Made by a program: the position numbers and the translations under genes. The notes beneath the pieces are model-generated. The model searched no databases and was not told the DNA's origin. It was given only the letters and a program-made list of their open reading frames with translations. This document shows, in pieces, positions 472 to 13,655 of a stretch of 26,112 nucleotides of DNA. Every line of letters starts with the position of its first letter. Position 1 is the first letter of the stretch. The stretch lies in IMG/VR virus record IMGVR_UViG_3300042453_002532, positions 1-26,112 of that record; one strand, 5' to 3'. Origin of the DNA: a virus.

Positions 472-1396
472 AATACGGTTATACGGTGCGCTTGCCAAGT
501 TTGTTGGTACTCGTGTCTTGTATGCTGATGTAAGCAGCGCTGCTGACGCAGTGCGTTTTTTAGTTGCTAATTTTGCAGGTATTGAGCAGCACATGAGCGA
601 CAGCTACTATAAAGTTGCTGTCGGCACGTACACCCTGGCCGAGGACGATCTTCACGCACCAGTAGGCAGCCAAGACATCCAAATCGTTCCAGTCATAGGT
701 GGCGCTGGCGCGGTAGGACGCATCATCCTCGGTGTTGTTCTTATCGGTCTTTCGTTTATTCCAGGTATCGGTGCCCTTGTAGCTCCTGTGCTCTTCGGCT
801 TAGGCGCGAGTCTGATACTGGGCGGGGTTTCGCAACTGCTCACGCCGGTCCCGGTACTACCTAAAGGGCAAGACAGACAGGACGATCCACAAAAAAGTTA
901 TAGTTTTTCGGGTGTTCAGCAAACATCACGTCAAGGCATTCCTGTTCCCATTGTGTACGGGAAGCGTCTAACAGGAAGCGTAGTCATTTCTGCTGGTGTA
1001 AGCACCGACGTACCAGCCGGAGATTACGCGGCCTCATACACATACCCTGGACACATCGACACGTCTACACGCTTTAAGTATTTGGTTTATTATGACTGGG
1101 ATACTTGTCTATTCGGCCCTAATGGCGTTATAGAAAACGGTAATGCTATCGACGGCGCCAACGGCTGGCTTGTCGATGGGCGGGTTTTACTTAGACCTAT
1201 ATCCAATGCGCAAGCAGTCGTCGTCTGGGCTACTGGAAACATGACATCAATATACGCTCCTAGCACGGTTGTTGCTATTGATACGCTTTATTCAGTAGGT
1301 GTTATAGTTTCCAACACTGTAACGCGCAGAGCCTCCGCTTGCGGAGATAGTTATTGGATACGCTCAGAGTTAACCAACACGTTTGTGGCACCATGA
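461..1396 (+). CDS. Tail assembly protein gpI-like with extra C-terminal region
   Basis: 311 aa. Residues 1-80 look like the ubiquitin-like N-terminus of lambda gpI ([13 protein letters not shown], ending in a QIVPVIGG segment). Residues 84-127 are a long Gly-rich hydrophobic stretch, and residues 160-182 ([20 protein letters not shown]) match the usual end of gpI proteins. In lambda, gpI is needed for tail-tip assembly and may not remain in the virion. Lambda gpI is about 223 aa; here about 125 further residues (roughly 185-311), rich in Tyr, Trp and Val, follow the normal end, and I do not recognise them. The ATG at 461 overlaps the upstream stop by 11 bp and the TGA overlaps the next ATG (ATGA, 1393-1396), so translation is probably coupled. 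No Shine-Dalgarno site is visible. The position between gpK-like and gpJ-like genes supports the assignment. Confidence 0.8.
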
Positions 1397-4074
1397 CTAG
1401 CGACCGTAACTCGATTATCGGTGCTGGCGGAGGCGGATGTTTCACGCCTGACACGCTGGTGCGTACAGCTAACGGTGATGTAAGCATTGCGACTATAAAA
1501 GCTGGAGACACAGTTATCGCGTTTGATGATACGGGAGCGCTGCATGAAGCCTCCGTATTGGCCGTACACGTACACGAAGATAACGAGGTATTTAGATACA
1601 ACTTATGGGGTTCCCGCTATATCGACGCTACGCCAAACCATTGGGTACTTAACCAGTTCAACACGTTTGTAGAGATAAGCACACTGAGTTTAGACGACTG
1701 TTTCGTAGACGTAAATAACCACCTGCGCCCGTACAAAGGGTGCGCAAAACTACCTAACACAGCTGTATACAATCTTACAGTAGATAAGTATCACACATTT
1801 ATAGCTAACGGCATCCGCGTTCACAACGCGGGTTTAGGCGCGGACACCATCGCCGGATCTGGAGGCGGTGGCGGGAAAGGACGGGGCGGCGGCGGAACCC
1901 GCGTGCCGGTAACAGCCCCAGATAGTCTTAACTCCGTACAGTACGCGCATGTCCTTGACCTAATCTCTGAGGGCGAAATAGAAGGTCTAGTCGATGGCCT
2001 AAAATCTGTATACATAAATAATACGCCGCTACAAAATAACGACAACAGCTACAACTTTGAGGACGTAGAACTATTTACGCAGACTGGTACTCAAGACCAA
2101 GGTTGGGTGCCGTTGGGTTCGGGTGGTGTTGAAAACGAGGTAAACGTAGGTGTTACGGTACGTCAAGCCATACCTATTACCCGTTCTATTACAAACTCGG
2201 AGGTAGACGCAGTACGAGTAAAGATTGCAATCCCTGCGCTGCAATCCATCGACAACACCAACGGTGATACCTACGGTACATCCGTAACGCTGCGCATATC
2301 CGTACAGTACAGCGGCACTGGGTTCGTCGATGCAGTCGTCGATACTATATCTGGCAGAACTTCCGATAGATACGACAAACAGTATGTCGTAGCCCTGAAC
2401 AGTAGGACGCCAGGGGTGGTTGTTGATGTGCGTGTAACTAGAGTTACTGCAGATAGCGGGAGTCAGCTGCTCAGCAACGAGTTCGCCTGGACTAGCTACA
2501 CGGAGATAACATACATTCGTCTTGCATACCCAAACAGCGCCCTTATAGGTCTACGAGTAAACGCACAACAGTTCAATTCCGTACCACAGCGCAGTTACCT
2601 GATTAAAGGTATAAAAGTTCAAATACCTTCTGGGGTCACAGTAGACTCCACCACGGGACGGATTATCTACCCAACAAACTTCGTCTGGAACGGCACATTT
2701 AGCTCTGCCGTTTGGACCTCCTGCCCTTCCTGGATTTTGTGGGACTTGCTTACCGATAGCCGTTACGGATTCGGTGATCACATCGCACCAGGGCAACTCG
2801 ATAAGTGGGCATTTTTTGCCGCATCAAAGTACGCTAACGAGCTTGTAGCCGATGGCTTCGGAGGACAAGAAGCCCGCTTCTCGTGCAACGCGGTTATCCA
2901 AACATCAGACGACGCATACAAGCTCATCAATGATTTACTTTCTGTCATGCGGTGTCAGGGTTTCTGGGCGTCTGGTGCGTTAACTATCGCACAGGACAGA
3001 CCCGCAGACCCGGTATATCTATTCAGCCCAGCCAACGTGTCTAAGGAAGGCTTCAGCTATAGCGGATCAAGCCTAAAGGCACGGCCGAACGTGGCTGTTA
3101 TTAGCTACTTCGACAACGATCTACGCGATATCGGGTATGAGGCAGTTGAGGATATTGCATCCGTAGATAAGTATGGTGTGGTTAGAGCTGATATTACAGC
3201 TTTTGCTTGTACCAGTAGAGGTCAGGCGAATCGAATAGGTAGATGGCTGCTCTACACGGAACAGAACGAAACAGAAGTTGTATCGTTTAAGTGTGGTGTT
3301 GAAGCGGGTTATCAGGTGCGTCCTGGGCAACTCGTTCGCATCGCCGATCCGCTGCGCATGGGTTCGCGCAGAGCAGGGAGAATTGCATCCGCCACTACTT
3401 CGCAAGTAACTGTAGACAACGCTGCTGAAACAGATTTATCAGGTAGCCTAATTCAAGCTGTACTTCACGTTATTCTGCCTACAGGCGTAGTAGAGTCCCG
3501 TGGCATAAGCAGCATTGCAGGCGGTGTAATTTATGTAAGCACGCCGTTCAGCGTAGCCCCTAATGTAAATTCTGTATGGATTATTGAAAATCCAACTGTG
3601 GCGCCCTCCACATGGCGTGTAGTCAGTGTTAAGGAGGAAGATGCTACAACTTATGTTGTATCGGCTCTAGCATATTCTGCAGCTAAATATGGATACGTCG
3701 AGGCAGGCGAAAAACTAGCCCCACGCAGTCTGACAAACCTCAATCCACTGCCGCCAGCTCCCACTGACGTACGCGGCATCGAAGCCGACGTTGACATAAA
3801 TGGCGTAATCGTAAAAAAGGTTGTATTTACCTGGGTGCCTCCCCAAGGTATAGCTCAATTCCGCGTGCGCTATCGCTACGAATCCGACAACTTTACAACG
3901 CTAGTAGTCCAGGGCACAACCTTTGAAATTGTGGGTGCATTAGCTGGTACTTACTACATACAGGTAAACGGCATCACCGCTAGCGGAGAAGTCACCTTGG
4001 CTAGCTTGGGGCAATATCAGGTAGGCCCATACGTTGACACAGACTACTGGGCTAGCGACTACACGGCTAGTTAA
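1393..4074 (+). CDS. Tail tip / host-specificity protein gpJ-like with embedded Hint domain
   Basis: 893 aa from the ATG at 1393, chosen because it makes a 4-bp ATGA overlap with gpI; a TTG at 1354 is the alternative. Residues 16-145 are a Hint (intein-like) domain inserted between two glycine-rich stretches. From about residue 170 the protein aligns by eye with lambda gpJ: DLISEGEIEGLVDGLKSVYI, ITRSIT, ASSYTEI-type and WD.LTDSRYGFG blocks, the DGFGGQEARFSCNA block, and CTSRGQANRIGRWL. A fibronectin-III-like segment (about 775-865) precedes the end. gpJ forms the tail tip and contacts the receptor; without the Hint domain this copy is about 760 aa against 1132 in lambda. The far C-terminal receptor-binding part is missing or unlinked. 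The stop is TAAGCTGCG, a context shared with two later genes. Codon use is more AT-rich than in the right-hand modules. Confidence 0.9.
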   Translation: MTSDRNSIIGAGGGGCFTPDTLVRTANGDVSIATIKAGDTVIAFDDTGALHEASVLAVHVHEDNEVFRYNLWGSRYIDATPNHWVLNQFNTFVEISTLSLDDCFVDVNNHLRPYKGCAKLPNTAVYNLTVDKYHTFIANGIRVHNAGLGADTIAGSGGGGGKGRGGGGTRVPVTAPDSLNSVQYAHVLDLISEGEIEGLVDGLKSVYINNTPLQNNDNSYNFEDVELFTQTGTQDQGWVPLGSGGVENEVNVGVTVRQAIPITRSITNSEVDAVRVKIAIPALQSIDNTNGDTYGTSVTLRISVQYSGTGFVDAVVDTISGRTSDRYDKQYVVALNSRTPGVVVDVRVTRVTADSGSQLLSNEFAWTSYTEITYIRLAYPNSALIGLRVNAQQFNSVPQRSYLIKGIKVQIPSGVTVDSTTGRIIYPTNFVWNGTFSSAVWTSCPSWILWDLLTDSRYGFGDHIAPGQLDKWAFFAASKYANELVADGFGGQEARFSCNAVIQTSDDAYKLINDLLSVMRCQGFWASGALTIAQDRPADPVYLFSPANVSKEGFSYSGSSLKARPNVAVISYFDNDLRDIGYEAVEDIASVDKYGVVRADITAFACTSRGQANRIGRWLLYTEQNETEVVSFKCGVEAGYQVRPGQLVRIADPLRMGSRRAGRIASATTSQVTVDNAAETDLSGSLIQAVLHVILPTGVVESRGISSIAGGVIYVSTPFSVAPNVNSVWIIENPTVAPSTWRVVSVKEEDATTYVVSALAYSAAKYGYVEAGEKLAPRSLTNLNPLPPAPTDVRGIEADVDINGVIVKKVVFTWVPPQGIAQFRVRYRYESDNFTTLVVQGTTFEIVGALAGTYYIQVNGITASGEVTLASLGQYQVGPYVDTDYWASDYTAS
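1438..1827 (+). other. Hint / bacterial intein-like (BIL type A-like) domain inside gpJ
   Basis: Residues Cys16 to Asn145 of the gpJ-like protein. Block A is CFTPDTLVRTANGDV, with Cys as residue 1. Block B is ATPNHWVL with the T-x-x-H signature (Thr80, His83). The C-terminal blocks are YHTFIANG and RVHN, ending His144-Asn145. There is no homing-endonuclease insert (about 130 aa in total). The residue after Asn is Ala, not Cys, Ser or Thr, so canonical intein splicing lacks its +1 nucleophile; type A BIL domains share this trait and are known to cleave and sometimes splice. The glycine-rich flanks (GAGGGG before, AGLGAD then GSGGGGGKG after) are flexible linkers where cleavage would be tolerated. 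Domain identity is clear from the motifs; its activity is inferred. Confidence 0.88.
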
Positions 4075-8475: not shown

Positions 8476-9016
8476 CCTGCCCGAGTGGTATCTGAGAGAC
8501 GGCATGAAGCAGCTGCTCTAATGTTCCATCGTTCACAATATAACGCGCAAAATGGGGCCAATCATCTAGGCTTCCCTCCGAGGCGTGCGTGTGCGTATTA
8601 ACCATTCCTTTACGAGTAATCTTCCACATCTCACCCCCTAAGCTGCGGATCAGCTCTGCTTCGTTTTCAAACCTTACATCGTCCACAACAACGTACTCGT
8701 GCCGCTTAATACGCGCTTGCCACACACGCAGCCACACATCAGGCGCAACGCAAGTTCTTCCCCACTCCGTACCCAAGGTCTGCAGCAGGTGACGCGTACT
8801 CACCCCTAAGTCGGTGAGCACAATCTCCTTATCGACGTAAAGCCGCTGCGCAGCCTGTTCCGGCGTATAACCGATGCCTACAAGCAACGGAAACACCATT
8901 TCCTTCAATGGTTCTGCGAAGGGCACCCGCACAAACACGCTGCTCTCCAGCGCATGACTAACCGCCGTCTTACCGCTACGAGGCGCAGGAGAATAAAGTC
9001 CAATAAGCTTAGTCAT
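8453..9016 (-). CDS. Deoxynucleoside monophosphate kinase (T4 gp1-like)
   Basis: 187 aa. Near the N-terminus is a P-loop variant, YSPAPRSGKTAVS (Gly15-Lys16-Thr17), followed by a helix and PFAEPLKEM, the layout of phage dNMP kinases of the T4 gp1 / adenylate-kinase-like group. VVVDDVRFENEAELIRSLGG is typical of the Walker B side and the lid region of this family. The enzyme phosphorylates dNMPs to dNDPs, turning degraded host DNA into precursors for phage DNA synthesis. It starts in an ATGA overlap with the upstream sigma-factor stop (9013-9016), so the two are co-translated. Length is close to other short phage members of the family (T4 gp1 is longer). Confidence 0.82.
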   Translation of the reverse strand: MTKLIGLYSPAPRSGKTAVSHALESSVFVRVPFAEPLKEMVFPLLVGIGYTPEQAAQRLYVDKEIVLTDLGVSTRHLLQTLGTEWGRTCVAPDVWLRVWQARIKRHEYVVVDDVRFENEAELIRSLGGEMWKITRKGMVNTHTHASEGSLDDWPHFARYIVNDGTLEQLLHAVSQIPLGQDGADPPG

Positions 9017-9894
9017 ACAAGCCTCACTGATTTCAAGCGCAGACGCATTTTAAGGTGTGCAGCCTCGATGCGCTGCCTAATGCGTTCTCTTGAAACATTG
9101 TCCTCAGCTGCGATGCTAGACAGTGACATCGGTTCGCCGCCATTAAGCCCGTATCTGCGCTGGATCGTAAGCAGTTCGCCTTCAGTTAGGCAGGCGAGGG
9201 CGATCTGGAACATCGCCTGTTTTTCATCCTTCTCCATGCAGTCCTTCTGCCTATCCAGCGAGTCGGTGTCTGGGATAAGCTCCAGGATTGGGCTGCCCGT
9301 CTCACTTACCAAGGCATCGAGGCTGCGATGCCAGGCGTTCCGGGCTAGCAGCGTCTGCATGTGCGCAACCTCAACATCTGCCTCTGCCGCCATCTGCGCA
9401 ACAGACGGCATCTTGCCGTGCTCCTGCAGATGCGCCTTCTGAAACCGCACCACCTTATACACCTTGTCGAGTCCGTGCTGCGGCACACGGATAAGCCGCT
9501 CCTTAGCGTCAATGCCCCGCGTAATTGCCTGCCTCACCCACCAATAAGCGTAAGTGGAGAACTTATAACCCTTACTGCTGTCGAATAGTTCGACTGCGCG
9601 TGTAAGTCCGAATGCACCTTCCTGTACTAAGTCCATAAGTTCCATGCCGCTACCATTCAGACGCCGCGTGTACTGCTTAGCAACACTGACAACCAACCTA
9701 AGATTGCAGTTAATCAGCTTACGCTTAGCGCGTTCAGCCACCTTAAGTGTGCGCTTCTCTTGGGCGCTAAGTTCCTGCTTATCGGCTAGGGCAGTGCCGC
9801 ACTCGATTTGACGCGCTAGTTGAATCTCTTGTTCCGCGGTGAGCAGCGGATACCTAGCGATTTCGTTTAAGTAATCCTTAACAGAGTCGGTCAT
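9013..9894 (-). CDS. Group 2-like sigma-70 factor of cyanobacterial type
   Basis: 293 aa. Region 1.2 begins at residue 3 (DSVKDYLNEIARYPLLTAEQ), close to cyanobacterial SigB/C/D-type factors. Region 2 covers 58-128: NLRLVVSVAKQY, MELMDLVQEGAFGL and GYKFSTYAYWWVRQAITR, the core-binding and -10-recognition segments. Region 3 follows (RLIRVPQH at 134-140), and region 4 has the helix-turn-helix SLSSIAAEDNVSRERIRQRI at 258-277. All four regions are intact and the non-conserved region is absent, as in group 2 sigmas. It would bind host core RNA polymerase and direct it to phage promoters. The start has the context AAGCTTATGAC. Its stop overlaps the dNMP kinase start. Known myoviral cyanophages use a shorter gp55-like sigma, so this host-like version is notable. 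Confidence 0.93.
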   Translation of the reverse strand: MTDSVKDYLNEIARYPLLTAEQEIQLARQIECGTALADKQELSAQEKRTLKVAERAKRKLINCNLRLVVSVAKQYTRRLNGSGMELMDLVQEGAFGLTRAVELFDSSKGYKFSTYAYWWVRQAITRGIDAKERLIRVPQHGLDKVYKVVRFQKAHLQEHGKMPSVAQMAAEADVEVAHMQTLLARNAWHRSLDALVSETGSPILELIPDTDSLDRQKDCMEKDEKQAMFQIALACLTEGELLTIQRRYGLNGGEPMSLSSIAAEDNVSRERIRQRIEAAHLKMRLRLKSVRLV

Positions 9895-9948: not shown

Positions 9949-10167
9949 TTACTCTTGGCCTGGTTCAAGCAGCTTTACAGTTCGTCGCCTTCCAGCCTTT
10001 TCGATCCACCGGAAAGCATCGCTGGGTAGGAGCAGCTCAGGCGCCTGGAGCGTGTACCAGCGGTGCTCACACGCTTGGCAATGCCTCCTTCTAACGATCT
10101 GATCACCATCGGCATAAGCCGTCATGACAACGCTATTGCGCTGGCACGCACATCCTGGGCATCGCAT
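9949..10167 (-). CDS. Zinc-ribbon protein like the NrdR N-terminal domain
   Basis: 72 aa from the ATG at 10167 (context GCGCTTATGCG). The protein opens MRCPGC (Cys3, Cys6) and continues VRRRHCQACEHRW (Cys30, Cys33), a four-Cys zinc ribbon with the RRR-x-C-x-x-C-x-x-RW spacing of NrdR, the repressor of ribonucleotide reductase genes. NrdR also has an ATP-cone of about 100 aa; here only about 35 residues follow, so the nucleotide-sensing part is absent. A DNA-binding or transcription role is likely from the fold. It is followed by a 54-bp gap and then the sigma gene. Ogr/Delta-type zinc activators are an alternative family. Confidence 0.72.
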   Translation of the reverse strand: MRCPGCACQRNSVVMTAYADGDQIVRRRHCQACEHRWYTLQAPELLLPSDAFRWIEKAGRRRTVKLLEPGQE

Positions 10168-10172
10168 AAGCG

Positions 10173-10502
10173 CTAAATTACCGTCTTAGTGTTGAATTGG
10201 GGGTCTGATTCGTCCAGACCATGGGCCAGCGGGTCGAACGAGCCTTCGACATTAGCATCCCCAACAGGCGCTGGAACGTCCCCCTTCCTCTTAGCGTCCA
10301 TGTCCGCCAAGCTGCTAAGCCATGAGTCCAGCGATTCGCGCATAGGCAGCCCTTTTGCGATGCTTAGGAAGCGGCGCAACTCTTTCACGTCGCGCACGAA
10401 CACCGAAGTGCCGCTGGAGTAGGCGATAAAGTAGCGCCCATTGTAATCGCGCCCAGTCTCGATAGACTGGTGCAAACTCAGGCGTAAGGTGTCGCGCTTC
10501 AT
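10173..10502 (-). CDS. Hypothetical protein (109 aa)
   Basis: 109 aa from the ATG at 10502, chosen because it makes an ATGA overlap with the upstream membrane-protein gene; the frame is open further upstream but overlaps that gene. The N-terminal 55 residues look like a beta-rich fold (RLSLHQSIETGRDYNGRYFI, then YSSGTSVFVRDVKELRRFL), followed by a helix and a polar, acidic C-terminus. No named family recognised. It ends 5 bp before the zinc-ribbon gene. Last member of the mini-gene array in transcription order. Confidence 0.65.
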   Translation of the reverse strand: MKRDTLRLSLHQSIETGRDYNGRYFIAYSSGTSVFVRDVKELRRFLSIAKGLPMRESLDSWLSSLADMDAKRKGDVPAPVGDANVEGSFDPLAHGLDESDPQFNTKTVI

Positions 10503-10639
10503 AGGCGTGGCGTACGGTTTGTGGGTGTAGCTAGCCTCAGCAGCAAGGGCAGCAGGCGCACAAAGGCCGCTTTGATGCACAGCTCAACCGCTGCGCCGAG
10601 GGCGAGCAGCAGGGCGAGGGCAAGCAGGGTGTTAAGCAT
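10499..10639 (-). CDS. Small hydrophobic membrane protein (46 aa)
   Basis: 46 aa from the ATG at 10639. Residues 2-18 (LNTLLALALLLALGAAV) and 24-37 (AAFVRLLPLLLRL) are hydrophobic, separated by a short segment with Glu19, and a polar C-terminus ends NRTPRL; one or two membrane helices are likely. Both ends are fixed by overlaps: its ATG overlaps the preceding gene's stop by 8 bp (ATGCTTAA) and its TGA overlaps the next ATG (ATGA). These junctions are the main reason to accept such a short ORF. Function unknown. Confidence 0.65.
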   Translation of the reverse strand: MLNTLLALALLLALGAAVELCIKAAFVRLLPLLLRLATPTNRTPRL

Positions 10640-10916
10640 CGGCACCCTCCACCTCAGGCACCGGCTCGATGGCAGGGCGGCCCCAGCGGGCAAGGACGGC
10701 GCGGGCGTAGTCCTTGTCGGTGCTGAAAGGGTCTTCAAACACAGCAACGGCCAAGGCCATTAGCTCCTCATCCGTCGGCCCCTGCGGCTCGGGCTGGGCA
10801 AGCAAGGCGCGGGCGTTGTTCCGCCAAGCATCCCAATCCACTCGTTGGCCATCTTCATATTGATCCAGTTTTTGAAGGATCTCAGAGCACAGGGCTTTGT
10901 AATCGGGGTCAGGCAT
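10632..10916 (-). CDS. Mini-gene array protein with TDEEL ... ARAVLARWGRP motif
   Basis: 94 aa. It starts MPDPDYKALCSEILQKLD, has ALLAQPEPQGPTDEELMALA in the middle and ends with RAVLARWGRPAIEPVPE. I recall this modular pattern, a short helix pair around PEPQGPTDEEL and a C-terminal RAxLARWGRP, as widespread in cyanophage hypothetical proteins. A longer relative with two copies lies at 11098-11625. A good ribosome-binding site (AAGGAG, 6-7 bp spacing) precedes the ATG, within the end of the upstream gene, which overlaps by 8 bp (ATGCCTGA). Role unknown. Confidence 0.75.
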   Translation of the reverse strand: MPDPDYKALCSEILQKLDQYEDGQRVDWDAWRNNARALLAQPEPQGPTDEELMALAVAVFEDPFSTDKDYARAVLARWGRPAIEPVPEVEGADA

Positions 10917-11085
10917 CTAAGTCTCCTTCACTTGTGGGGGCAGTGCTCCAAATTGTGTGAAGCTCATCGCATCGACGTTTCAGCATGTCCGTTTGCAGCC
11001 AATAATCGAGGGGTGACGCAAAAGTCTCAACATTGATCTCTCGGATGATGATTGTTTTCTCTTGCTTAGCTGGGTAGAGAGCCAT
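10909..11085 (-). CDS. Hypothetical protein of the mini-gene array (58 aa)
   Basis: ATG at 11085 to TGA at 10909, 58 aa. The sequence reads MALYPAKQEKTIIIREINVE, then a helix with TFASPLDYWLQTDMLKRRCD, and ends PTSEGDLDA. I do not recognise the family. The 8-bp overlap with the next gene (ATGCCTGA) and 12-bp gap from the previous stop fit the array. Its C-terminal PTSEG is also the near-C-terminus of the unrelated protein at 12404-12619, because both genes share 15 bp of DNA that carries the next gene's ribosome-binding site. Confidence 0.65.
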   Translation of the reverse strand: MALYPAKQEKTIIIREINVETFASPLDYWLQTDMLKRRCDELHTIWSTAPTSEGDLDA

Positions 11086-11097
11086 TAGTATGCTTAT

Positions 11098-11625
11098 TTA
11101 GGATTGTTCATTATCCATCGGCGCCACCGGCTTGATTGCGGGGCGGCCATAGCGGGCTAAAGCGGCGCGGACAAAGCTGAGAATCTCGCCGGGCTCAGAG
11201 GTAATCCTTCCACCATCAACGGTGTATGAGTCGGGTTCAGGAAGATTACTGGCACGACTAAGCAATTCAAGCAATTCCTCATCCGTCGACCCCTGCGGCT
11301 CTCTTCCGTGCGGGCCGCGGCCCCAGCGGGCTAAAGCGGCGCGGATCGTCTCGCTGAACTCGTCTGACTTGAAACAACGTCGCCACCCATGCACTTCTGG
11401 GTCCATTTCCTCTAAGGGGACTTCCGCAGCAGCGTCTGCCCATTCTTCTATCTCTTGATCCGTTGGTTCCTCATCCATCGGCCCCTGCGGCTCGGGCTGG
11501 GCTAGCAGGGCGGCGCGGGCGCGGGCCATAACAATCCGCAGGTGGCCGGGGTAACGCACTTCGGGATGTCGGTTTTCATCCAGTCCTTGCAGTAGCTCAG
11601 CGCACAGCGCACGGAAGTCAGTCAT
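11098..11625 (-). CDS. Array protein with two TDEEL/RAALARWG modules
   Basis: 175 aa from the ATG at 11625 (8-bp ATGACTGA overlap with the upstream stop); the frame stays open upstream inside the neighbour. The protein begins MTDFRALCAELLQGLDENRH like the 10632-10916 product, has ALLAQPEPQGPMDEEPT near residue 45, a first TIRAALARWGRGPHG, then EPQGSTDEELLELLSRA and a second VRAALARYGRPAIKPV. It is thus a tandem duplication or fusion of the short family unit. GGAG lies 8 bp before the start. Function unknown; the family seems to be a mobile small-protein module in cyanophages (recollection, not a search). Confidence 0.72.
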   Translation of the reverse strand: MTDFRALCAELLQGLDENRHPEVRYPGHLRIVMARARAALLAQPEPQGPMDEEPTDQEIEEWADAAAEVPLEEMDPEVHGWRRCFKSDEFSETIRAALARWGRGPHGREPQGSTDEELLELLSRASNLPEPDSYTVDGGRITSEPGEILSFVRAALARYGRPAIKPVAPMDNEQS

Positions 11626-11935
11626 TAGTTTGCTCCGATTTGTAGGGTCCAGTGAGTTGGCCGTGTTCGTCAGTAAAGCCAGCTTCAAAAAGAAACTGCC
11701 TGGCAGCGTCCTTGTCGCCAGCTAAGGCTCGCTCCATCAGTGTTGGAGCGGTAAGCTCAGCGGCCATGTCTTCCAAGGTTGAGCACCGAACACCTACAAG
11801 GGTGGTATCATCGCTGTAGCTCTCCCAAGCGTTAGCCAAAAGAATAAGCACATTAGCGATGCCATGGCGCATGTTCTGGCCGTATTCAAACTCTTCAATC
11901 AAACGCTGGGCGCGTTGAGTTAGGTGGTCAGTCAT
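11618..11935 (-). CDS. Helical hypothetical protein of the mini-gene array (105 aa)
   Basis: 105 aa from the ATG at 11935, set by the 8-bp ATGACTGA overlap with the upstream stop. Sequence: MTDHLTQRAQRLIEEFEYGQ, then HGIANVLILLANAWESY, a middle segment with STLEDMAAELTAP, and an end GFTDEHGQLTGPYKSEQTND. Predicted mostly helical and soluble. I recognise no family. It follows the array plan at both ends (8-bp overlaps), with no clear Shine-Dalgarno site, so it may rely on coupled re-initiation. Confidence 0.65.
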   Translation of the reverse strand: MTDHLTQRAQRLIEEFEYGQNMRHGIANVLILLANAWESYSDDTTLVGVRCSTLEDMAAELTAPTLMERALAGDKDAARQFLFEAGFTDEHGQLTGPYKSEQTND

Positions 11936-12179
11936 TTTGAGCGGCAGCAAATAAGTTGGTTGCGATTTCATTGCGACGCTTCTGCGTTTGACAGACAAGC
12001 TCGATGTAAGCATTTATGGCGGAAGCAGCGAGGAGTCGGTCTTGCATGCCAAAGCAGTAATCCTTTCGTGTGTACCTGAGCGCGTGCTCCAAGTCACGCA
12101 GTCGGCTACCAGGAATGGGCCATACCGTTCCATCAAAGTGAACAAACGGACTGCCTTCATGGATGGTGAAATCAGCCAT
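11928..12179 (-). CDS. Hypothetical protein of the mini-gene array (83 aa)
   Basis: 83 aa from the ATG at 12179 (8-bp ATGGCTGA overlap with the upstream stop; GAGGG lies nearby). It starts with a small beta-like part MADFTIHEGSPFVHFDGTVW followed by helices (RLRDLEHALRYTRKDYCFG and LAASAINAYIELVCQTQKRR). No known family. The frame extends upstream on the same strand but there it runs through the coding part of the neighbour, so the overlap start is preferred. Confidence 0.65.
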   Translation of the reverse strand: MADFTIHEGSPFVHFDGTVWPIPGSRLRDLEHALRYTRKDYCFGMQDRLLAASAINAYIELVCQTQKRRNEIATNLFAAAQND

Positions 12180-12411
12180 TGCACTTACCCTCCAGCTCGG
12201 CGGCGATGGCGAGAAGCTGATCGCGCACTTTGCAACGATTGCGAATGGCGGCAAGTGAAAAGGATCCTTTGTCGATGTCACTAGGCTCCGGCACCACCTG
12301 ATTGGCAGCAGCTCGCAGGGCGGCGGCTGCAATCTCATCGGCAGGCGCAGGGCAAATTTCGCGCACGGCATCCAGAATCGCCTGAGCGGCGGGGGAGAGA
12401 GGCTCAGCCAT
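12172..12411 (-). CDS. Array protein, LSPAAQAI ... LLAIAAELEG family, copy 1
   Basis: 79 aa from the ATG at 12411. It begins MAEPLSPAAQAILDAVREIC, has AALRAAANQVVPE in the middle and ends QLLAIAAELEGKCNG. A paralogue with the same three blocks lies at 12612-12818. I recall this three-block family from Synechococcus phages and some cyanobacteria, unnamed. GAAGGA precedes the start within the shared 15-bp boundary sequence. Both junctions are 8-bp ATGGCTGA overlaps. Role unknown; the even spacing of Ala and Leu suggests a small helical domain. Confidence 0.72.
   Translation of the reverse strand: MAEPLSPAAQAILDAVREICPAPADEIAAAALRAAANQVVPEPSDIDKGSFSLAAIRNRCKVRDQLLAIAAELEGKCNG
12187..12213. repeat. 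27-bp direct repeat, copy 1 (copy 2 at 12624-12650)
   Basis: Bases 12187-12213 and 12624-12650 are identical and encode the IAAELEG end of the two paralogous array genes. In both places the repeat is followed on the coding strand by a few bases and then the ATGGCTGA junction, so the homology reaches the boundary with the next gene. Confidence 0.85.
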
Positions 12412-12619
12412 CAAAGTTTCCTTCACTTGTGGGTTGGTGCTTCTTGGCGTGCTGCTTGCAATAAAGACCGTCAGGGCCATGGCCACGTTTGCGGCAGCAT
12501 TGGTGAGGAATCCAGGTGCCTGGCGCAGAAGGCCAGACTTCTTCAATGCAGCGGGTCGGGTCTTCTGCTTGCCCTTGAGGGCAGCCACCCCAGACCCCGT
12601 ACCGGCGTTGGTCAGCCAT
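12404..12619 (-). CDS. Small zinc-binding-type protein (HQCCRKRGHGPDGLYCKQHA)
   Basis: 71 aa from the ATG at 12619. Conserved-looking Cys/His positions are Cys13, Cys24, Cys41, Cys42, His47, Cys54 and His57, in the pattern GGCPQG, DPTRCIEEVW, HQCCRKRGHGPDGLYCKQHA. Proteins with DPxRC and GHGPxGLFCKQHAK are frequent in cyanophages as I remember them, always hypothetical. A structural zinc site and a DNA- or RNA-binding role are plausible but not shown. The start is set by the 8-bp ATGGCTGA overlap and has GGAGG upstream. Its last residues, PTSEGNFDG, come from the shared boundary DNA. Confidence 0.75.
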   Translation of the reverse strand: MADQRRYGVWGGCPQGQAEDPTRCIEEVWPSAPGTWIPHQCCRKRGHGPDGLYCKQHAKKHQPTSEGNFDG

Positions 12620-12818
12620 TGCCACCCTCCAGCTCGGCGGCGATGGCGAGGAGGCAAAGGCGTATTGAGTGCCTGGCAAAGCCCGCATGTGTTTCCGGCA
12701 CCACCTGATCCGCAGCAGCGCGGAGGGCGGCGGAAAGGTCGTACTCGTATGGGCAGTCCTCCGGAGTGTTGTAAGCGGCATTCCATACAGCCTGCGCTTG
12801 TGGCGACAGTTCAGTCAT
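12612..12818 (-). CDS. Array protein, LSPQAQAV ... LLAIAAELEG family, copy 2
   Basis: 68 aa from the ATG at 12818 (ATGA overlap with the upstream stop). Blocks MTELSPQAQAVWNAA, SAALRAAADQVVPET and LLAIAAELEGGNG align with the 12172-12411 product. The middle between blocks has diverged, while 27 bp at the 3' end (12624-12650) are identical to 12187-12213 of the paralogue. Function unknown. The pattern of identical ends and divergent middles suggests recombination or recent partial duplication rather than simple drift. Confidence 0.72.
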   Translation of the reverse strand: MTELSPQAQAVWNAAYNTPEDCPYEYDLSAALRAAADQVVPETHAGFARHSIRLCLLAIAAELEGGNG

Positions 12819-12844
12819 TCAGGTAGCGCCTCCAGTGCGCGGCG
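12813..12844. repeat. 32-bp direct repeat, copy 1 (copy 2 at 13187-13218)
   Basis: Bases 12813-12844 and 13187-13218 match in 31 of 32 positions (T versus A at 12824/13198). Each copy spans the end of one array gene (RRALEALPE), a GGAGG ribosome-binding site, the ATGA stop/start overlap and the first codon or two of the next gene. The genes on either side do not otherwise resemble each other. Confidence 0.88.
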
Positions 12845-13192
12845 GATCGTGTTGTAAGTGTTTTGTTTGTCGTCGTGATCTGGATTGCCATAGATGTAGG
12901 TATCTAAGGCGGCATAAGCCTGCTCCTTCAAGCTCGGCGGCTTGGGGCGGCGAATCATATGGAGATCTATTGCAACATGCTTGCCGTCGCAAATCAATTC
13001 ACGGGCAAGCACCTCACAGCACGCCTCCAGTTCCTGGTCAGCCCCTGCTTGAAACGCTTGGATCAATAAAACATCAGGATGTTCTTCTTCGTCAAACCAT
13101 TTGTCTTCCCACTTCTTTAGTTGATCAGAAGGTGGAATAGCTGGGTGTGGATCAATGACAAACAACTTGTCACCGTTGATTTGTTTAGTCAT
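12815..13192 (-). CDS. Hypothetical protein of the mini-gene array (125 aa)
   Basis: 125 aa from the ATG at 13192 (ATGA overlap). Sequence begins MTKQINGDKLFVIDPHPAIP and continues with an acidic helix (LKKWEDKWFDEEEHPDVLL), a helix with AGADQELEACCEVLARELI, and ends TIRRALEALPE. The C-terminal RRALEALPE recurs in the next upstream gene, and the DNA there is a near-identical 32-bp repeat. No named family. A ribosome-binding site (GGAGG) sits inside the repeated boundary. Confidence 0.68.
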   Translation of the reverse strand: MTKQINGDKLFVIDPHPAIPPSDQLKKWEDKWFDEEEHPDVLLIQAFQAGADQELEACCEVLARELICDGKHVAIDLHMIRRPKPPSLKEQAYAALDTYIYGNPDHDDKQNTYNTIRRALEALPE

Positions 13193-13455
13193 TCAGGAAG
13201 CGCCTCCAGTGCGCGGCGCTCCCATGCCCAGGCCACAGCCTGCTTAGCGATGTGCTGGTCCGACTCGGCCAGCGTGGCCTCGCCGCCCATGCTCGACCAC
13301 TCCTCAACCAAGCCACTCGGCAGCTCAGGAGTTGGCTGGTTGAGCACATGCTCAACCCACGCGACGTGGGTCATGACTGCGTGCGGTCCAGGCGGCAGAC
13401 CATAGGACTCCTGCCACCACTTGCGGAAGGCTTGTTCAACTGCAATGCGATCCAT
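13189..13455 (-). CDS. Hypothetical protein of the mini-gene array (88 aa)
   Basis: 88 aa from the ATG at 13455, which shares one base with the upstream TGA (TGATG). It starts MDRIAVEQAFRKWWQESYGL, with several Trp and His (VMTHVAWVEHVLNQ), and ends AWERRALEALPE. I recognise no family. The C-terminal segment and its DNA are shared with the 12815-13192 gene although the rest of the two proteins does not align. Confidence 0.66.
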   Translation of the reverse strand: MDRIAVEQAFRKWWQESYGLPPGPHAVMTHVAWVEHVLNQPTPELPSGLVEEWSSMGGEATLAESDQHIAKQAVAWAWERRALEALPE

Positions 13456-13655
13456 CAGCCCAGCTCCTCGCTGTAAAACGCGCTAAGGGGTCCGTAGAAG
13501 TTCTGCAGATCAGGGAAAGCTGCAAACAACGTAAGCCTGTTGGACGGATCTGCAGCCAAGCCTGCGTCAGCAAGCTTGCGCATAAAGTTGCCTCCAAACC
13601 TCTGCGCTGTAAGCAGGGTGTGGATCTGTTGCTCAGCAGTAAGTGGTAATGACAT
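13455..13655 (-). CDS. Hypothetical protein, first gene of the mini-gene array (66 aa)
   Basis: 66 aa from the ATG at 13655 (context GCCTTATGT). Sequence MSLPLTAEQQIHTLLTAQRF, then GGNFMRKLADAGLAADPSNR and a segment FAAFPDLQNFYGPLSAFYSE. It reads as a small, mostly helical soluble protein. No family recognised. It opens the run of overlapping genes and so its upstream region (13656-13706) would carry any array-specific promoter; I see no good -10/-35 pair in those 51 bp. Confidence 0.65.
   Translation of the reverse strand: MSLPLTAEQQIHTLLTAQRFGGNFMRKLADAGLAADPSNRLTLFAAFPDLQNFYGPLSAFYSEELG

What the first reader, a model, noticed from the sequence alone, without database searches (positions are those of the whole stretch)
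10173..13655. Thirteen-gene mini-gene array with a stereotyped 8-nt overlap
Thirteen small genes (46-175 aa) run leftward with almost no spacing. Seven of twelve junctions are 8-bp overlaps of the same form, ATG-NCT-GA or ATGCTTAA (10632-10639, 10909-10916, 11618-11625, 11928-11935, 12172-12179, 12404-12411, 12612-12619), so the second codon of each gene (GCT, ACT, CCT or CTT) contains the upstream stop's first base. Three are ATGA, one is TGATG and one is a 12-bp gap. Ordinary phage overlaps are mostly 1 or 4 bp; a repeated 8-bp type across unrelated genes points to one ancestral junction that has been copied or exchanged.
Basis: seen in the sequence. Interest (0 to 1): 0.85.

Follow-up and report, generated by a model that had tools for sequence, protein, structure and literature searches.

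The report
Swappable overlapping small-gene array in cyanophages
A stretch of thirteen tiny virus genes, each starting inside or right at the end of the one before, is a fast-changing block of interchangeable genes in viruses of cyanobacteria; the repeated 8-letter overlaps mark joints where genes are swapped, and one simple start sequence may let almost any gene be plugged in.

Summary
An 8-nt ATGNNTGA overlap is not exotic: it is the shortest overlap possible in that frame and the third commonest in prokaryotes. Seven of eleven is still high (about 10% in T7, lambda, T4 and Fruitloop; 32% in related arrays). 'One ancestral junction' is too strong: at least four tail lineages are involved, and homologous gene pairs switch between 8 and 4 nt. 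'Copied or exchanged' is well supported. Near-identical gene tails carrying the next gene's Shine-Dalgarno sit on unrelated proteins and precede many unrelated genes. A relative with ~94%-identical flanks has the array interior replaced, with breakpoints exactly at a stop and a start codon. Homology breaks at 84% of 8-nt junctions against 50% of 4-nt and 34% of 1-nt junctions. Best explanation: a hypervariable, translationally coupled mini-gene array of cyanophages whose junctions are exchange points. Starts reading ATGACTGA carry stops in both other frames, so an incoming gene can close an upstream gene in either frame; this last step is supported but partly family-driven and unproven.

The parts
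13455..13655 (-). array gene 1 (66 aa)
   Evidence: pN/pS median 0.55; shorter start 13583 preferred by the caller
13189..13455 (-). array gene 2 (88 aa), upstream boundary gene conserved in L011; ends RRALEALPE; 1-nt overlap with gene 1
12815..13192 (-). array gene 3 (125 aa), phrog_32006, same RRALEALPE tail; ATGA junction
12612..12818 (-). array gene 4 (68 aa), AAELEG-tail family; ATGA junction
12404..12619 (-). array gene 5 (71 aa), tail PTSEGNFDG; 8-nt overlap with gene 4
12172..12411 (-). array gene 6 (79 aa), AAELEG-tail family; 8-nt overlap with gene 5
11928..12179 (-). array gene 7 (83 aa), weak phrog_3472 match; 8-nt overlap with gene 6
11618..11935 (-). array gene 8 (105 aa); 8-nt overlap with gene 7, no Shine-Dalgarno
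11098..11625 (-). array gene 9 (175 aa), MTDFRALC start and internal repeats; 8-nt overlap with gene 8
10909..11085 (-). array gene 10 (58 aa), tail PTSEGDLDA; follows a 12-nt gap
10632..10916 (-). array gene 11 (94 aa), tail EVEGADA; 8-nt overlap with gene 10
10499..10639 (-). array gene 12 (46 aa, hydrophobic leucine-rich peptide); 8-nt overlap with gene 11; conserved in other arrays together with about 16-31 nt of the preceding gene's tail
10173..10502 (-). array gene 13 (109 aa), downstream boundary gene; homology with L011 starts at its start codon
12809..12844 (-). junction repeat (36 nt, 94% to 13183-13218) spanning tail, Shine-Dalgarno, stop and start
   Evidence: bodies without blastp hit
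13183..13218 (-). second copy of that junction repeat
12401..12433 (-). junction repeat (33 nt, 88% to 10906-10938), 8-nt type
10906..10938 (-). second copy of that junction repeat
12624..12653 (-). tail repeat CTCCTCGCCATCGCCGCCGAGCTGGAGGGT (30 nt, 97% to 12187-12216) carrying the next gene's Shine-Dalgarno
12187..12216 (-). second copy of that tail repeat
10502..13189 (-). exchangeable interior of the array: replaced in L011 between ~94%-identical flanks

Best explanation
A hypervariable array of small accessory genes in a cyanophage lineage, expressed as one leftward, translationally coupled unit. (1) Shown: each gene's last codons usually encode the next gene's Shine-Dalgarno in a fixed phase (NNG-GAG-Gnn, giving L/V-E-G/A tails), and start and stop codons interlock by 8, 4 or 1 nt. 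(2) Shown: near-identical junction DNA is shared by unrelated genes, and array contents are replaced between junctions in close relatives. (3) Inferred: junctions are exchange points, by short-homology or illegitimate recombination filtered by selection for an intact junction. (4) Inferred: many genes here start ATGACT(G/A)A, which carries a stop in both other frames (A-TGA-... and ATGAC-TGA). Such a gene closes an upstream reading frame in either frame, giving a 4-nt or an 8-nt overlap roughly equally often when a join is new. Older operon joins drift to, or are selected for, 4 or 1 nt. The 8-nt junctions are thus mostly young joins, not copies of one ancestor. (5) Inferred: expression runs by termination-reinitiation coupling, so an inserted gene is translated at once.
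For: Tails: 272 similar-tail pairs (24/30 nt or more) on proteins with no blastp hit between bodies, against 2-4 for mid-gene windows. An exact 24-nt ELEGGN junction found by DNA pattern in 58 IMG/VR stretches precedes at least 15 mutually unrelated genes. Tail similarity is also 24 times more likely when only the downstream genes are homologous than when neither gene is (0.62% vs 0.026%). Replacement: L011 has 93-95% identity in the flanks but a different array interior, with breakpoints at the stop codon at 13189 and the start codon at 10502. 56 of 204 replacement or indel events have both ends within 15 nt of a gene boundary (per-end null 9.4%), and 32% of homology ends lie within 6 nt of a junction against 7.5% at random. 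Young joins: homology breaks at 84% of 8-nt junctions, 50% of 4-nt and 34% of 1-nt (p = 1.7e-7 for 8 vs 4; 78% vs 43% without the retrieval families). The 8:4 ratio is 76:60 at broken and 15:57 at unbroken junctions, and 2:61 next to genes over 300 aa. Dual-stop starts: 52% of broken against 15% of unbroken junctions, and 53% vs 16% within 4-nt junctions (p = 3.5e-5). ATGACTRA begins 14.8% of ATG genes here against 8 of 349 in six control phages. Shine-Dalgarno: 73% at 8-nt, 49% at 4-nt, 17% at gaps over 20 nt, 8-9% at internal ATGs; phase fixed.
Against: Gene-boundary breakpoints are general in phage mosaicism, so part of the signal is not special. With one junction per downstream family, the dual-stop enrichment (23% vs 9%) keeps its direction but loses significance (median p 0.14, 87 families). 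Given a fourth base A, ATGACTRA is only weakly enriched at 4-nt junctions over widely spaced starts (p = 0.04). One 8-nt junction (11928/11618) has no Shine-Dalgarno. Loci were retrieved by array proteins, so families are over-represented. No expression or coupling data exist.
Confidence: 0.6

Rival explanations
1. One ancestral 8-bp junction was duplicated or transferred across the array.
For: Within a tail lineage the overlap length is conserved (90-99% of similar-tail pairs). Two tail pairs in the window are copies on unrelated bodies.
Against: At least four different tail lineages give 8-nt overlaps in this window. Pairs homologous on both sides with diverged tails are mixed 4/8 in 416 of the 1173 that use 4 or 8. 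199 different last-8-residue tails occur among 282 8-nt junctions.
Confidence: 0.12
2. Ordinary compact operon: small phage genes overlap minimally, and the 8-nt form is just the shortest overlap in its frame combined with a lineage preference for Met-Thr/Ala-Asp/Glu starts; no exchange function.
For: The -8 ATGNNTGA overlap is the third commonest in prokaryotes and the shortest in its phase (PMC10666635). ATGACTRA is also found at 6-7% of non-overlapping starts in the pool.
Against: Does not explain shared tail DNA on unrelated proteins, the concentration of homology breaks at 8-nt junctions, or 8-nt being commoner than 1-nt here.
Confidence: 0.2
3. The tails are conserved because the C-terminal peptides matter (for example protein-protein docking or degradation tags), and the DNA similarity follows from protein selection.
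For: Tails such as IAAELEG and RRALEALPE are conserved at protein level within families.
Against: Near-identical synonymous codons and similarity running past the stop into the next start (36 nt). The last residues change with the frame (PE* vs PND* vs QLDD*) while the Shine-Dalgarno codons stay. Phase-fixed GGAGG is seen in all overlap classes.
Confidence: 0.08

Closest known systems
Minimal unidirectional gene overlaps with termination-reinitiation coupling (-4 ATGA, -1 TGATG, -8 ATGNNTGA; PMC10666635, PMC6728339, PMC3887535)
   Same: Same overlap forms; the Shine-Dalgarno lies in the upstream gene; 8 nt is the shortest phase-1 overlap.
   Different: Elsewhere -8 is rarer than -1; here it is commoner than -1, concentrated in small-gene arrays, and associated with homology breaks.
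Start-Associated Sequences of Cluster K mycobacteriophages (PMC3203893)
   Same: A repeated sequence at the ribosome-binding position of many small non-structural phage genes, with an AGGAG core.
   Different: SAS is one 13-bp consensus (GGGATAGGAGCCC). Here several different repeats are coding (the C-terminal codons of the previous gene), with interlocking start and stop.
Promoter-early-stem-loop (PeSL) cassettes of T4-type phages and the S-PM2 'ORFanage' (discussed in PMC4503421)
   Same: Plastic regions of small orphan genes exchanged between phages, with shared regulatory sequence proposed as the site of shuffling; cyanophages include such regions.
   Different: PeSL are promoter plus stem-loop elements. 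Here the shared sequence is a translational junction inside overlapping genes; no PeSL search was made.

Membership tests
Termination-reinitiation coupled gene pairs | Stop and start codons overlap or lie within a few nt | tested here: met
   11 of 12 junctions overlap by 8, 4 or 1 nt
Termination-reinitiation coupled gene pairs | Downstream translation depends on upstream translation | not testable with these tools
   needs reporter or ribosome profiling data
Start-Associated Sequences (Cluster K) | Single 13-bp consensus GGGATAGGAGCCC just upstream of starts | tested here: not met
   The sequences upstream of the 13 starts show different GGAGG-type tails, none reading GGGATAGGAGCCC
PeSL cassettes | Early promoter plus stem-loop between exchanged genes | not tested
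   11 of 12 junctions have no intergenic space, which leaves little room for such an element; no promoter or stem-loop search was run
Hypervariable phage small-gene region | Content differs between close relatives with conserved flanks | tested here: met
   L011 with 93-95% identical flanks, interior replaced

The most novel reading that the evidence does not exclude
A plug-and-play gene array: start octamers that hold stop codons in both other reading frames (ATGACTGA), fed by a Shine-Dalgarno written into the previous gene's last codons, act as universal acceptors. A new gene can be joined downstream of almost any other gene, end it cleanly and be translated at once, and the overlap length (8 vs 4 nt) records how recently the join was made.
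Probability: 0.3. Interest if true: 0.78.

Novelty: new variant of a known kind. Interest (0 to 1): 0.58.

Why it matters
How phages trade genes one at a time without breaking expression is an old question. Here the joints are visible, repeated and phase-fixed, so the idea that exchange happens at coding-sequence junctions that also carry translation signals can be tested by counting and by reporters. It also warns that shared C-terminal tails in these proteins (LEG/LEA-type) may reflect the next gene's ribosome-binding site rather than shared protein function.

Tried and rejected
No nucleotide match to named phages. Pfam gave no match for the ten array proteins tested and PHROGs gave only two families of unknown function, so individual functions stay unknown. 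The idea that dual-stop octamers are specially enriched at all 4-nt junctions was tested against starts with the same fourth base: only weak (p = 0.04). It became strong when junctions were split by whether homology breaks there, and weakened again with one junction per family. Single-linkage body families were too coarse (one family of 395) and were replaced by pairwise tests. A scan of bacterial genomes found only two relatives, in a Cyanobium MAG and an actinobacterium MAG, which may be binned phage. Two literature searches for prior descriptions of this junction type in cyanophages returned nothing on point and one on junction sequences returned no paper; subscription papers are mostly not held. 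No structure predictions were run: they would not bear on the junctions.
Full report
What is there. The window is a 26,112-bp IMG/VR virus record with a tail-tip J protein, lysozyme, DNA polymerase A, primase/helicase, a phage sigma-70 factor and a dNMP kinase. Relatives of array proteins are found in Synechococcus phages S-RIP1, S-H1, S-CBS2 and B23, so it is most likely a cyanophage. The 13-gene leftward array at 10173-13655 is exactly as described: seven 8-nt, three 4-nt and one 1-nt overlaps, and one 12-nt gap. A dynamic-programming gene caller without any overlap-length preference recovered the same junctions, differing only in the start of the outermost gene. All 13 genes have homologues with pN/pS below 1.

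Is it more than chance? An 8-nt ATGNNTGA overlap is the shortest possible in its frame and the third commonest in prokaryotes (PMC10666635). Among 1-, 4- and 8-nt overlaps in T7, lambda, part of T4 and part of Fruitloop it makes 10%, so 7 or more of 11 has P = 2.5e-5. Among small-gene junctions of related contigs it makes 32%, so P = 0.03. The whole lineage is therefore enriched, and this array is near the top of it. Next to genes over 300 aa the 8-nt form almost vanishes (2 against 61 4-nt).

Anatomy of a junction. In all overlap classes the Shine-Dalgarno core sits in one codon phase of the upstream gene, NNG-GAG-Gnn, which writes L/V-E-G/A into the C-terminus. Given that phase, an 8-nt overlap leaves 6 or 9 nt between GGAGG and ATG, and a 4-nt overlap leaves 4, 7 or 10. 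A motif is present at 73% of 8-nt, 49% of 4-nt, 52% of 1-nt and only 17% of widely spaced starts, against 8-9% at internal out-of-frame ATGs. In the window 9 of 13 starts have one. The gene caller rewards such motifs, which inflates all the called-gene rates somewhat.

Tails are shared DNA. In the window, genes 13189 and 12815 have no body similarity but share 36 nt at 94% across stop and start; 12404 and 10909 likewise share 33 nt at 88%. Across 1,451 junctions, 272 similar-tail pairs (at least 24/30 nt) link proteins with no detectable body similarity, against 2-4 for mid-gene windows; gene starts behave like tails (270). Tails stay with upstream families when the downstream gene changes (14.8% of such pairs), and are 24 times more often similar when only the downstream genes are homologous than when neither is. 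The exact DNA string GAGCTGGAGGGTGGCAATGRCTGA, sought without reference to any protein, occurs in 58 stretches of IMG/VR and precedes at least 15 mutually unrelated genes.

Genes are swapped at the junctions. Contig L011 is about 94% identical to the window on both sides, but the interior between genes 13189 and 10173 is different: six genes in place of ten, some from the same families, with a 139-nt piece 98% identical to the end of gene 12172. Similarity stops at the stop codon of one boundary gene and begins at the start codon of the other. L041 keeps the downstream boundary gene and flank (92%) but also has a different array; there the strong similarity begins about 78 nt inside the boundary gene. 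Over all loci, 32% of homology ends fall within 6 nt of a junction (7.5% at random), and 56 of 204 replacement or indel events have both ends within 15 nt of gene boundaries (per-end null 9.4%). Breaks are commonest at 8-nt junctions: 84% of unique 8-nt junctions against 50% (4-nt) and 34% (1-nt), and still 78% against 43% (8 vs 4) without the two tail families that dominate the retrieval. Boundary breakpoints are a general feature of phage mosaicism; the excess at 8-nt joints is the specific part.

Why 8 and 4. A gene beginning ATGACTGA offers a stop in both other frames. Such dual-stop starts make 52% of junctions where homology breaks and 15% where it does not, and 53% against 16% among 4-nt junctions alone, where the second stop is unused. 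At broken junctions 8-nt and 4-nt overlaps are about equal (76:60); at unbroken ones 4-nt dominates (57:15). That is what random-phase joining followed by drift or selection to shorter overlaps would give, and a lower coupling efficiency of -8 is reported (PMC10666635). Caveat: with one junction per downstream family the dual-stop trend keeps its direction but is not significant (median p 0.14). Homologous gene pairs with diverged tails switch between 4 and 8 (416 mixed, 410 4/4, 347 8/8), so the overlap length is not a single inherited mark.

Function. The proteins are unknown (no Pfam match for the ten tested, two PHROGs of unknown function). From their position in a run of leftward genes that also includes an NrdR-like zinc ribbon, a sigma factor and a dNMP kinase, and from their variability, the likely role is accessory host-takeover or anti-defence functions; this is inference.

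Known or new. It resembles Start-Associated Sequences of Cluster K mycobacteriophages (PMC3203893) and the plastic regions of T4-type phages and the cyanophage 'ORFanage' (PMC4503421). It differs in that the shared element is coding, overlapping and translational. I rate it a new variant of a known kind.

Noticed in passing
window 1354-4074 (+): Tail-tip protein J homologue has an N-terminal Hint/PT-HINT match (aa 35-160, E 4e-10) before the FNIII-A_GpJ domain: a possible intein.
   Followed up: no
window 9013-9894 (-): Phage-encoded sigma-70 factor with regions 1.2, 2, 3 and 4, next to an NrdR-like zinc ribbon protein (9949-10167); S-CBS2 also carries an RpoD-like sigma factor close to its own run of 8-nt overlaps.
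   Followed up: no
window 10499-10639 (-): A 46-aa hydrophobic, leucine-rich peptide gene is conserved at 74-96% nt identity in many otherwise different arrays, together with about 16-31 nt of the preceding gene's tail.
   Followed up: partly
window 12918-12952 (-): A 35-nt stretch inside gene 12815 (encoding RRPKPPSLKEQA) is 100% identical in dozens of contigs whose matching gene is otherwise diverged; perhaps an internal module boundary.
   Followed up: no
related contigs: Shine-Dalgarno motifs are scarce at non-overlapping starts (17%) but common at overlapping ones (49-73%), as if they served coupling more than de novo initiation.
   Followed up: partly
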